From positions 1 through 56,868 of the forward strand of contig JAGWVN010000012.1 of the NCBI GenBank assembly GCA_018970865.1: DNA of 56,868 nucleotides, read 5' to 3'. A program made the position numbers and the translations under genes. Of this stretch, positions 6,989 to 11,794 are shown in pieces; the first letter of the stretch is position 1; every line of letters begins with the position of its first letter. Source of the DNA: Betaproteobacteria bacterium. Lineage in GTDB: Bacteria; Pseudomonadota; Gammaproteobacteria; Burkholderiales; Burkholderiaceae_E. The notes below the pieces were generated by a model. That model did no database searches. It worked only from the letters and a program-made list of their open reading frames with translations, and was not told the DNA's origin.

Positions 6989-7972
6989 GTGCGCGCCATT
7001 CACCGACTTGTCCTGCTGATCCTCATCGCACTCGGTCTGCCGGCGACCGCGGCACCCTACAAGGTGCTGGTGGTGATGAGCTACGAAGAGGACAACCCCT
7101 GGGTCAGGGAAATCCGCGAAGGCATCGAGAGCGTGCTGCGCGGGCAGGCCGAGATCACCTACTTCCACATGAACACCAAGGTCGACCCCCGGGGAGGTCC
7201 GCGTCGGGGAGAGGAGGCCTTCGAGCTGTTCCGCAGCCTTCGGCCACAAGGGGTGATCACCGCCGACGATGACGCCCAGTCGATGTTCGTCGTGCCCTTC
7301 CTGAAGGACCGCACCAGCGTCCCGGTCATGTTCAACGGGGTCAACTCGCCGGCCGACCGCTACGGGTTTCCCAACGCCCACATCTCGGGTGTGCTCGAGC
7401 GCGCGCATGTACGGGAATCGCTCGCCTTCATCCGCCAGCTGGTGCCCACCGTGCAATCGGCCTGCTTCATGACCAACCGTGTCGGGCCGGGGCTGGCTCT
7501 GCGCGCTCAGGTCGACGCCGAGAAGGCCGACTATCCGGTGCGCGCCGGGGCATTCCACCTCGTGGCCACCACGGCCGAGCTCGCGAAGGCCACGCAGGGG
7601 CTCAGCCGGAGCTGCGATGCGCTCTTCGTGGACAGCCTGGAGGGCATCACCGATGACGCGGGCACCGCGCTCAATCACCGTCAGGTGATGACCCTGCTGA
7701 GAGCGCAGTTCCCAGGCCCCATCCTCGCCGGCAATCGCTACCAGGTGGAGCAGGGCGCCTGGGCGGCAGTGATCAAGACCGGCCAGGAGCAGGGCGATAC
7801 CTCGGCGCGCATGCTGCTCGAGGCAATGCGCGGAAAGCCGGTCGGCGAGCTCGCGGTCGCCCGCAATGTCCGGGGCCAGCGGATCATCAATGTCACCGCG
7901 CTCGAAGCCAGGGGCGTGGCGCTGCGCCCGATGGACCTGCGCGGCGTCACCCTGGTGCGTGAGCAGCCCTGA
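6989..7972 (+). CDS. Periplasmic substrate-binding protein (ABC_sub_bind type), likely sensor partner
   Basis: The 327-aa protein begins with a signal peptide: RAIHR, then the hydrophobic LVLLILIALGLPATAA with an Ala-x-Ala cleavage site. The mature part (YKVLVVMSYEEDNPW..., ITADDDAQSMFVVPFLKD, PVMFNGVNSPADRYGFP) resembles the periplasmic-binding family often filed as ABC transporter substrate-binding protein (DUF534-like). No permease or ATPase lies nearby. A membrane hybrid kinase begins 36 nt downstream, so I infer a sensory rather than transport role, by analogy with TorT-TorS. I chose GTG 6989 (GGAGA ahead). An in-frame ATG at 6923 with AGAGG before it is a real alternative but gives an odd Pro/Arg-rich leader. 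The ligand is unknown. Confidence 0.8.
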   Translation: MRAIHRLVLLILIALGLPATAAPYKVLVVMSYEEDNPWVREIREGIESVLRGQAEITYFHMNTKVDPRGGPRRGEEAFELFRSLRPQGVITADDDAQSMFVVPFLKDRTSVPVMFNGVNSPADRYGFPNAHISGVLERAHVRESLAFIRQLVPTVQSACFMTNRVGPGLALRAQVDAEKADYPVRAGAFHLVATTAELAKATQGLSRSCDALFVDSLEGITDDAGTALNHRQVMTLLRAQFPGPILAGNRYQVEQGAWAAVIKTGQEQGDTSARMLLEAMRGKPVGELAVARNVRGQRIINVTALEARGVALRPMDLRGVTLVREQP

Positions 7973-8008
7973 GCGGCTGGCGTTCATGTCGCTCGGCTGC
8001 AGCGTCCG

Positions 8009-11000: not shown

Positions 11001-11794
11001 AGGCGGGCATGAACGCCCATGTGGGCAAGCCCTTCGTGCTGCGCGAGCTGTGCGCGGTGATCCTGCAGCTCTGCGGTCGCGCCGAACGCACCCCGCGCAG
11101 GGGTTCGCAGCCGGTGGAGTTATCCGGCGTGGTCGCTGAACTCGCGCGTGCGGCCGGCCTCGATGTCGATACCGCCATTCATCGCTTCAGCGGCCAGGTT
11201 GGCGTGTACGGCCGAATGCTGCGCAGCTTCCTCACCGAGCTGCCCGAGTCGATCGATCACATCGGCAAGGCTCTCGATGCCGGCAGGCTCGGCTCGGCCG
11301 GTGCAGCCTTCCACAGCCTGAAAGGCGTCGCCGGCAATATCGGCGCCAGGGCGTTGAGCGAGCTTGCCGAGGCCGGCGAACAGGGTTGCGAGGCAAATGC
11401 GCCTCGAGCCGTGCTCGGCGATCTGCTCGCCGCGATCCGCGACGCCGGCATGCGCCTCGGCCAGCACGGACCATCGCTGGTGGATGCGCTTCTCGGTAGC
11501 CTCGGCGGCCTTGCCCGCGCAGGCGTCGATGACAGCCTGCCATCACCCGCGGCAGACCTGCAGCCGGTGCTCGATCGCCTGCTGCCCCTGCTGCGCCGCT
11601 CCGACATGCGGGCGGTGGACGTGCTCGAGGAACTGCGCAGCCTGTCGGGTTCCCAGCCATTGTCCGAGGCGCTGGCCGAACTGGAAATGGCAGTCGATCG
11701 GCTGGATTTCGAGCTGGCCGCGGCGATCTGCGAGGGCTTCGGCACGCAGTCTGGCTGGTCCTCGTCCCGACCCTCGCGGCATCATCCCGTCTAG
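8009..11794 (+). CDS. Hybrid sensor histidine kinase (HAMP-PAS-HisKA-HATPase-REC-REC-Hpt)
   Basis: This is a 1261-aa inner-membrane phosphorelay kinase. TM1 is about residues 11-33, a helical periplasmic domain about 34-300, TM2 about 302-321, then HAMP and a PAS domain (about 378-490). HisKA has the phospho-acceptor H521 in SHEIRTPLN. The ATPase domain has N634/N638, DTGIGI (670-675) and GGTGLGL (699-705). Receiver 1 (about 755-875) keeps acidic IIDD, D810 and K865; receiver 2 (about 902-1015) has D955 and K1007. A C-terminal Hpt domain has H1102 in FHSLKG. This is TorS/EvgS-like with an extra receiver. No response regulator with an output domain is in the window, so its target is unknown. 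It is probably co-transcribed with the binding protein. Confidence 0.93.
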   Translation: MTERFAGIGARLVGLVLLVLAALALVGALVFFSFERIETLIGRRAVDEVSAVTGNAALSREFAAIHSRINLLSLACRSEQPPEDLLVAIAQPLARLTDEAAEPRLAQALRDFGSTASALIAQCRQVSAALRDSIALDRRLLADLLGLENIGARQIVEQTLLGRPIDHLEQLMAQVAGSRETALLVGRRVAGLRLLIAGAGGRDPSALALLDEVSLRLQSLMAPVPAMQRQRDAVLGTLREYRSSVLALDQALRRFDELQAGSQAMRDGLLREVGALDASATQRANALAGELGGLIQEARQRMLVAILAVAVLALGLAAWLIRSNIRRPLDQVLAQVAAIRSGLHGAPASPPRADEWGAIQSALSALSTELDASVSLRQRIIDTAPIRVFWKGADLRYLGCNPAFAHDLGLVNPNQVVGLDDQALRAQGCPVPDPGTDHEVLASGAARLGYESRRTGVDGRVSWERHSRVALRNAQGDIVGVLGIYDDITEGKRIEADLAQALAAARSAATAKSRFFASVSHEIRTPLNAVLGMLKLLQATTLTTRQADYVAKSKGAARSLLLLINDILDFSKIEADRLELDIGPLDLDQLLRNLSVILASTHDGAPIELIFDIDPAVPMRLRGDTLRLQQVLLNLAGNALKFTPAGEVVLSVRLHGCRDGKAQLAFSVRDTGIGIDPERQGSLFDGFAQADASIARRFGGTGLGLAISQRLVGLMGGRIHLSSTPGEGSVFGFEIPLALDSDQPTLPPAEARERRCALIIDDHGGARAALGRMAESLGWTALLAADPVQAQAIARTAHEGGTPVDIVFLDAGIAHGGPQPFALALPARPGEPAPATVLLMSSHDSEARELEAESLPGTRSGFLVKPVIASMLRDALQDAHSDVSRDVLRRAMARPSDLPLAGLRLLLVEDNANNRQVAQELLESEGALVSLAHDGQEGLAAVLRADPPFDAVLMDIRMPVMDGHAAARRIREIAHLRSLPIIAMTANVSAEDRLASEQAGMNAHVGKPFVLRELCAVILQLCGRAERTPRRGSQPVELSGVVAELARAAGLDVDTAIHRFSGQVGVYGRMLRSFLTELPESIDHIGKALDAGRLGSAGAAFHSLKGVAGNIGARALSELAEAGEQGCEANAPRAVLGDLLAAIRDAGMRLGQHGPSLVDALLGSLGGLARAGVDDSLPSPAADLQPVLDRLLPLLRRSDMRAVDVLEELRSLSGSQPLSEALAELEMAVDRLDFELAAAICEGFGTQSGWSSSRPSRHHPV

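What the first reader, a model, noticed from the sequence alone, without database searches (positions are those of the whole stretch)
6989..11794. Binding protein plus double-receiver hybrid kinase: a TorT/TorS-like sensory unit with no visible output regulator
A periplasmic binding protein of ABC_sub_bind type, without permease or ATPase, is 36 nt from a 1261-aa kinase with HAMP, PAS, two receivers and Hpt. This implies a periplasmic ligand sensed by a protein complex and a relay to an unlinked regulator. Ligand and target are both unknown.
Basis: partly seen in the sequence, partly recalled or inferred. Interest (0 to 1): 0.55.

Follow-up and report, generated by a model that had tools for sequence, protein, structure and literature searches.

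The report
Portable binding-protein sensor with swappable outputs
A periplasmic binding protein and the membrane kinase beside it look like one sensing unit; in other bacteria the same binding protein and the same outside-facing sensor part are attached to different signalling machines, so the pair looks like a plug-in sense organ whose chemical is still unknown.

Summary
In detail: an ABC_sub_bind protein (6989-7972) lies 36 nt upstream of a 1261-aa hybrid kinase (8009-11794) with PAS, HisKA, HATPase, two receivers (the first weak) and Hpt; Pfam calls no HAMP. The TorT/TorS-like reading is supported. Among 50 loci from named genomes whose binding protein is 39-67% identical, a protein with the same ~330-aa sensor domain follows in 37 of 39 with room to tell, and 0 of 50 show an ABC-ATPase-like ORF nearby. 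The sensor has no Pfam family here, but its AlphaFold model matches the McpS (HBM) and TorS sensors. The 33 classified relatives are 17 kinases, 11 GGDEF-EAL proteins, 4 chemoreceptors and 1 SpoIIE phosphatase; six loci carry two or three tandem binding proteins. Here the transmitter is closest to a paralogous kinase of the same genome, whose co-encoded receiver is a candidate target. An Asp-Asp pair (D93-D94) is present in 43 of 43 aligned relatives and in none of the six transporter-linked ABC_sub_bind proteins compared. Ligand, complex and target are untested. New variant of a known kind.

The parts
6989..7972 (+). Sensory solute-binding protein (ABC_sub_bind type, 327 aa, Sec-type signal peptide by eye, no lipobox Cys seen)
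   Evidence: AlphaFold model pLDDT 94.3; nearest folds CD0873, TrpX, VC_1101
7265..7270 (+). Codons of D93-D94, the Asp-Asp pair at the end of a beta strand that marks this sensory group
   Evidence: 43 of 43 rows of A4 and 33 of 48 further unique homologues carry it; strand 88-92 in the model
7973..8008 (+). 36-nt intergenic gap
8009..11794 (+). Hybrid sensor histidine kinase, 1261 aa
8009..9052 (+). N-terminal TM-sensor-TM region (348 aa modelled; family profile matches 8030-9016)
   Evidence: HBM/TorS-like fold
9167..9484 (+). PAS_4 domain
9539..9733 (+). HisKA, with phospho-acceptor His521 in the motif SVSHEIRTP
9875..10222 (+). HATPase_c
10280..10636 (+). Receiver 1, weak (22.1 bits, under cut-off); Asp810 and Lys865 kept
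10724..11062 (+). Receiver 2 (81.6 bits); Asp955
11213..11443 (+). Hpt domain; His1102
11558..11728 (+). C-terminal helical tail shared with the paralogous kinase P0003 (45% over 60 aa); not matched in the other 11 receptors compared

Best explanation
The two genes are a dedicated sensory unit. The binding protein is exported to the periplasm, closes on a small ligand and docks on the helical (HBM/TorS-like) periplasmic domain of the kinase. This changes the position of the second transmembrane helix and, through the PAS region, the activity of the kinase core; phosphate then moves His521 -> Asp955 (possibly also Asp810) -> His1102 -> a response regulator encoded elsewhere. The unit is a member of a family in which the same binding protein + sensor cassette is fused to different outputs (kinase, GGDEF-EAL, chemoreceptor, SpoIIE phosphatase). 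In this genome its transmitter belongs to a small set of hybrid kinases; one of them (contig C22) has its own ABC_sub_bind protein and a translationally coupled single-domain receiver, which is one candidate target. Shown here: gene order, domains, co-occurrence, predicted folds, output variety. Inferred: docking, helix movement, phosphorelay order, target.
For: Same sensor domain directly after the binding protein (or after a second tandem one) in 37 of 39 loci with room, 38 of 50 in all; 0 of 50 with an ABC-ATPase-like ORF in -5/+8 kb. Sensor profile built from the kinase's N-terminus scores 223-380 bits on the full-length + strand relatives. Sensor model pLDDT 90.6; best PDB folds McpS (VIA Z 18.5, 2.4 A, 221 aa), TorS 3i9y (17.3), TorS-TorT 3o1j/3o1h (17.2), against 14.9 for the first unrelated helical row; Foldseek E 1.7e-4 to 6e-4. 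Binding-protein model nearest to aromatic-amino-acid binding proteins (Z 25.0-26.6, next rows 18.3). Outputs confirmed by Pfam: MCPsignal in L083, L089, L091, L103; SpoIIE in L082; GGDEF+EAL in L077, L066; kinases L088, L099, L063, L069; the rest by motif. SBP and sensor distances correlate, r 0.685, 0 of 5000 permutations (36 loci). More distant DD-type ABC_sub_bind proteins are fused to GGDEF-EAL in one chain (L059, L179). Transmitter nearest to own paralogue P0003 (47%, 552 bits; next 206 bits) while sensor and PAS are nearest to kinases of the cassette family. Literature: binding-protein-activated receptors of several output types are known (PMC9602780, passages).
Against: No experiment. 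Neighbouring binding-protein and kinase genes are not always linked: AgtS and AruS of P. aeruginosa showed no binding to their neighbours (PMC11113362, abstract and passages). Two loci with room lack the sensor match: L084 (a kinase-like ORF follows, sensor not matched) and L093 (no receptor downstream). McpS, the best structural match, binds its ligand directly. In three genomes of another genus a distant sensor relative (128-137 bits) stands behind a different binding-protein family, Peripla_BP_4, and one weak match (45 bits, G495) has no binding protein beside it. The distance correlation is confounded by shared organism history. Of 39 sensor domains only 3 hit Pfam HBM, weakly, and no sequence match to TorS appears in the PDB search.
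Confidence: 0.77

Rival explanations
1. The kinase senses its ligand directly with its helical domain, as McpS does; the binding protein is co-transcribed but works for a transporter encoded elsewhere, so that uptake and sensing of one compound are merely co-regulated.
For: McpS is the best structural match. The binding protein's closest solved relatives belong to amino-acid ABC systems (PMC6816091, passages).
Against: 0 of 50 relatives show an ABC-ATPase-like ORF nearby. 0 of 33 further unique DD-type homologues have a permease+ATPase pair adjacent, whereas 6 of 15 non-DD ones have an ABC-ATPase-like ORF just downstream (two flags on DD rows are discounted: an LSGG-like motif inside the GGDEF ORF of L041, and a 459-aa hydrophobic ORF upstream of L043/L052). 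Fusions of DD-type proteins to GGDEF-EAL exist.
Confidence: 0.13
2. The pair is a decaying or idle import: present in one lineage, with a weak first receiver, and no longer signalling.
For: Within the taxonomic family the binding protein and sensor were found in 1 of 74 genomes, the window's own. Receiver 1 is under its cut-off. The copy in G107 is broken into several frames.
Against: Both genes are intact; H, N, G and D motifs are kept. A 70%-identical transmitter in the same gene order persists in G029, where the contig starts inside the kinase, so its sensor side is unknown.
Confidence: 0.05
3. The pair is a true TorT/TorS system for TMAO.
For: Shared sensor fold and a type I binding protein.
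Against: TorS models missed by far (346 of 676.5 and 212.5 of 982 bits), no TorT model hit, binding protein in a different Pfam family.
Confidence: 0.02

Closest known systems
TorT-TorS (E. coli / Vibrio; TMAO)
   Same: Type I periplasmic binding protein + helical two-storey sensor domain on a hybrid kinase; TorS-TorT chains are among the best structural matches of the sensor model
   Different: Kinase under TorS cut-offs, binding protein of PF04392 rather than TorT; extra receiver; no receiver protein on the contig; relatives carry non-kinase outputs
McpS / HBM domain (PF16591)
   Same: Fold: VIA Z 18.5 over 221 residues
   Different: McpS binds acids directly; window member matches no Pfam family, 3 of 39 members hit HBM weakly
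NspS-MbaA (polyamines, c-di-GMP)
   Same: Binding protein acting on a membrane GGDEF-EAL protein, as in 11 relatives here (abstracts in search listing)
   Different: A different pair of proteins; not compared by sequence here
TrpX / CD0873 / VC_1101 (PF04392 transport proteins)
   Same: Fold and family of the binding protein
   Different: Linked to transporters; the two selectivity residues named in PMC6816091 (Ala/Glu; Tyr/Gln) fall on N249 and G265 here by the profile alignment; D93-D94 replaced
LuxP-LuxQ
   Same: Binding protein + hybrid kinase; LuxP appears among fold matches
   Different: LuxQ sensor is PAS-like (PMC8534201, passages), not helical

Membership tests
TorS (TIGR02956, NF008543) | Score over the curated cut-off | tested here: not met
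   346 vs 676.5 and 212.5 vs 982 bits
TorS-like / HBM sensor fold | Stacked helical-bundle periplasmic domain | tested here: met
   AlphaFold model against PDB: McpS Z 18.5, TorS Z 16.0-17.3; fold only
HBM (PF16591) | Pfam match | tested here: not met
   0 Pfam families for the window member; 3 of 39 members at best E 6.6e-4
TorT | Match to a TorT model | tested here: inconclusive
   NCBIfam scan lists only TrpX (35.4 of 390 bits); whether a TorT model is in the library was not checked
ABC_sub_bind (PF04392) | Score over cut-off | tested here: met
   36.1 vs 25.9 bits
TrpX (NF041285) | Score over cut-off | tested here: not met
   35.4 vs 390 bits
Binding-protein-activated receptor | Genes adjacent and co-inherited | tested here: met
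   37 of 39 loci with room
Binding-protein-activated receptor | Physical binding and ligand-dependent activation | not testable with these tools
   needs purified proteins or mutants
BarA (NF008318) | Score over cut-off | tested here: not met
   384.3 vs 890 bits

The most novel reading that the evidence does not exclude
A single binding-protein + helical-sensor cassette acts as a portable receptor for one kind of ligand: evolution has plugged it into kinases, c-di-GMP enzymes, chemoreceptors and a SpoIIE phosphatase, so that the same chemical steers gene expression, biofilm state, movement or anti-sigma switching in different bacteria; and tandem binding proteins let several ligands feed one receptor.
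Probability: 0.4. Interest if true: 0.7.

Novelty: new variant of a known kind. Interest (0 to 1): 0.52.

Why it matters
Binding-protein-activated receptors are known one by one. Here one binding-protein family and one sensor family stay together while the output changes (at least 8 changes on the binding-protein tree and 6 on the sensor tree; well-supported branches alone force fewer). That makes ligand discovery efficient: a ligand found for any member, for instance through a chemotaxis or c-di-GMP readout, becomes a testable prediction for the rest. It also offers a sequence mark (Asp-Asp) for separating sensory from transport members of ABC_sub_bind, a family usually annotated as transporter parts, and a sensor domain that Pfam does not yet name in most members.

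Tried and rejected
Transporter component: no ABC-ATPase-like ORF near the binding protein in 0 of 50 loci (regex for Walker A plus LSGG, so unusual ATPases could be missed, and contig ends cut many windows).

TMAO/TorT-TorS identity: rejected on the models.

Aromatic amino acid as ligand: not excluded, but the two published selectivity positions are Asn and Gly here, so specificity cannot be carried over. The position match rests on a profile alignment at about 17-20% identity.

Sequence match of the sensor to TorS or HBM: none convincing; only the fold comparison worked. Helical bundles match each other easily, so Z is quoted with the unrelated background (14.9).

Cognate regulator beside the kinase: none on the contig. 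For kinase-type relatives, 17 of 18 have 2.2-8.0 kb after the kinase, and none of the 17 has a separate receiver ORF within 4 kb; L087 has one 4.8 kb away; L073, L090 and L092 have receiver ORFs on the upstream side.

Integration at tRNA-Cys: no second copy of the tRNA 3' end in the window at up to 3 mismatches. The neighbourhood differs in four congeners, which is not proof of an island.

Viral contigs: no relative found. Plasmids: 7 records at 25-30% identity.

PPR hits of the binding protein against the PDB: artefact, one 30-residue stretch against repeat proteins.

Papers: no report of this pairing found (open-licence PMC only). The 2021 review on binding proteins in signalling and the HBM paper are not held.

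Full report
Observation. Pfam gives ABC_sub_bind for the first, and PAS_4, HisKA, HATPase_c, two Response_reg stretches and Hpt for the second. HAMP is not called in the kinase, though five of ten relatives scanned have it right after the sensor. Receiver 1 is under its cut-off (22.1 of 30.2 bits), receiver 2 well over (81.6). Phospho-acceptors by motif: His521, Asp810, Asp955, His1102. The window is contig C181 of genome G000, and no other receiver domain lies on it.

Distribution. In the taxonomic family the binding protein was found in 1 of 74 genomes (own; E<=1e-10) and the sensor in 1 of 74 (own; E<=1e-6). At class level 24 of 369 sampled genomes have a binding-protein relative at E<=1e-15, own included; the best outside (42%) is G107. 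There the gene is broken into several frames and is followed by pieces of the same sensor domain, joined not to a kinase but to PAS, GGDEF and EAL-like segments (domains by eye and motif). A scan of named genomes gave 50 loci (39-67% identity), from Gammaproteobacteria, a Dechloromonas, Desulfobacterota and others.

Co-occurrence. A profile started from kinase residues 1-345 finds the same sensor domain in the protein after the binding protein in 38 of 50 loci. Of the 12 others, 10 end within 432 nt of the gene; L084 has a kinase-like ORF whose sensor is not matched, and L093 has no receptor downstream. One of the 38, L062, shows only the first stretch of the sensor before its contig ends. So 37 of 39 loci with at least 600 nt downstream are paired. 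No locus of the 50 has an ABC-ATPase-like ORF within 5 kb upstream or 8 kb downstream, where contigs reach that far. Six loci have tandem binding proteins: two in L076, L082, L085, L091 (in L076 and L085 within one ORF) and three in L081 and L087.

Outputs. Of the 38 paired relatives, 17 are kinases, 11 GGDEF-EAL, 4 chemoreceptors and 1 SpoIIE phosphatase; 4 are cut off (L062, L064, L080, L101) and L079 is a frame-broken kinase (by motif; Pfam confirms L063, L066, L069, L077, L082, L083, L088, L089, L091, L099, L103). On quick trees the outputs need at least 8 changes on the binding-protein tree (33 rows) and 6 on the sensor tree (34 rows), with 3 the least possible; starred branches alone force 3 for kinases, 2 for GGDEF-EAL and 1 for chemoreceptors. 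Several forks are weak, and the window's sensor is a long branch. Outputs are clustered on the trees, so swaps are rare but repeated. Distances of binding protein and sensor correlate (r 0.685, 36 loci, 0 of 5000 permutations), which shows co-inheritance and cannot separate co-evolution from shared history.

Fold. The sensor (A3, 39 rows) has no Pfam match in the window's member and only weak HBM hits in 3 of 39; a profile search of PDB sequences gave only chance-like helical hits. The AlphaFold model (pLDDT 90.6) matches McpS (Z 18.5), McpZ (16.5), PilJ (15.8) and the TorS sensor with and without TorT (16.0-17.3), over the first unrelated row at 14.9; Foldseek agrees. The binding-protein model (pLDDT 94.3) is closest to CD0873, TrpX and VC_1101 (Z 25.0-26.6), which bind Tyr, Trp and Phe (PMC6816091, passages). 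The two positions named there as selectivity switches are N249 and G265 here (my reading of the alignments).

A mark of the sensory group. All 43 aligned relatives have Asp-Asp at P0001 93-94, at the end of a beta strand. Of 48 unique further homologues from class genomes, 33 have it: 24 with a kinase/GGDEF/EAL-type ORF adjacent by motif, 2 fused to GGDEF-EAL in one chain (L059, L179) and 7 without a receptor detected; none has an ABC permease+ATPase pair. Of the 15 without it, 6 have an ABC-ATPase-like ORF just downstream, 3 a kinase, and 6 nothing detected in short loci. So the mark excludes the transport type in this sample, but some sensory members lack it.

The transmitter. Sensor and PAS are nearest to the kinases L067, L068, L063 of the cassette family, among 12 receptors compared, but residues 498-1240 are nearest to P0003 of the same genome (47%, 552 bits; next 206 bits). 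P0003 (weak dCache, HAMP, HisKA, HATPase, two receivers, Hpt) stands behind its own ABC_sub_bind protein and in front of a 157-aa single receiver that starts at the ATGA overlap with its stop. I infer that this kinase's output half was exchanged within the lineage and that the two kinases may share targets. In G029, a congener, a 70%-identical transmitter keeps the order kinase-cupin-selA, but the contig starts inside the kinase.

Reciprocal test. The sensor profile finds, besides own, 1 of 369 class genomes (G107) and 4 of 398 phylum-sample genomes. Three of these, from one genus, have a GGDEF-EAL receptor behind a Peripla_BP_4 binding protein (domains scanned in L232), and one is a weak match in a chemoreceptor with no binding protein beside it. 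The sensor type can therefore work with more than one binding-protein family.

Mechanism. Most likely ligand-loaded binding protein docks on the sensor and shifts the second transmembrane helix, as reported for TorS and NarQ (PMC8534201, passages), followed by a His-Asp-His-Asp relay. Gene order, domains and co-inheritance are shown; docking, helix movement, relay order and target are inferred. The caution from AgtS/AruS (PMC11113362) stands, although the same paper notes that 10 of 11 characterised binding-protein/kinase couples are gene neighbours.

Novelty. Receptors of each output type that use binding proteins are known (PMC9602780, passages; NspS-MbaA, search listing), and binding-protein domains in c-di-GMP proteins are known but little studied (PMC8846402, passages). 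I found no paper on an ABC_sub_bind family with one sensor domain and several outputs in the searches listed. Verdict: new variant of a known kind.

Noticed in passing
window 6480-6700 and 6989 onward: The pair starts 289 nt after tRNA-Cys, behind uvrC-pgsA-tRNA-Gly-tRNA-Cys. In four congeners with 6.9-8.5 kb after tRNA-Cys (L220, L221, L223, L224) no binding protein, kinase, cupin or selA match follows.
   Followed up: partly
L033 5250-9811 (G107): The binding protein and GGDEF/EAL partner are broken into many frames in a single-contig genome while several neighbouring ORFs look intact, and ORFs that look transposase-like lie near (12526-13780); a decaying copy or local sequence errors.
   Followed up: no
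L053 5731-12586 (own genome, C22): Three-part neighbour of the paralogous kinase: SBP_bac_1 protein, ABC_sub_bind protein, hybrid kinase and a coupled single receiver.
   Followed up: partly
L207 (own genome, C139): A third kinase with this transmitter type (46%) lies behind what looks by eye like another periplasmic binding protein, cut by the contig start, and in front of a second receiver-kinase protein.
   Followed up: no
L232, L236, L238 (genus g314): GGDEF-EAL receptor with a distant relative of the sensor behind a Peripla_BP_4 protein, with another gene that looks like a binding protein divergently upstream.
   Followed up: partly
L076 9947-11896 and L085 9896-11836: Two binding-protein domains in one ORF (650 and 647 codons) before a kinase.
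   Followed up: no
window 7169-7261 (P0001 residues 61-91): A helix-turn stretch that scores against designer pentatricopeptide repeat proteins (E 1e-8), an artefact of repeat summing.
   Followed up: no
window 12269-13696 (-): selA-like gene (by eye) two genes downstream, 92% identical in G029 in the same order.
   Followed up: no
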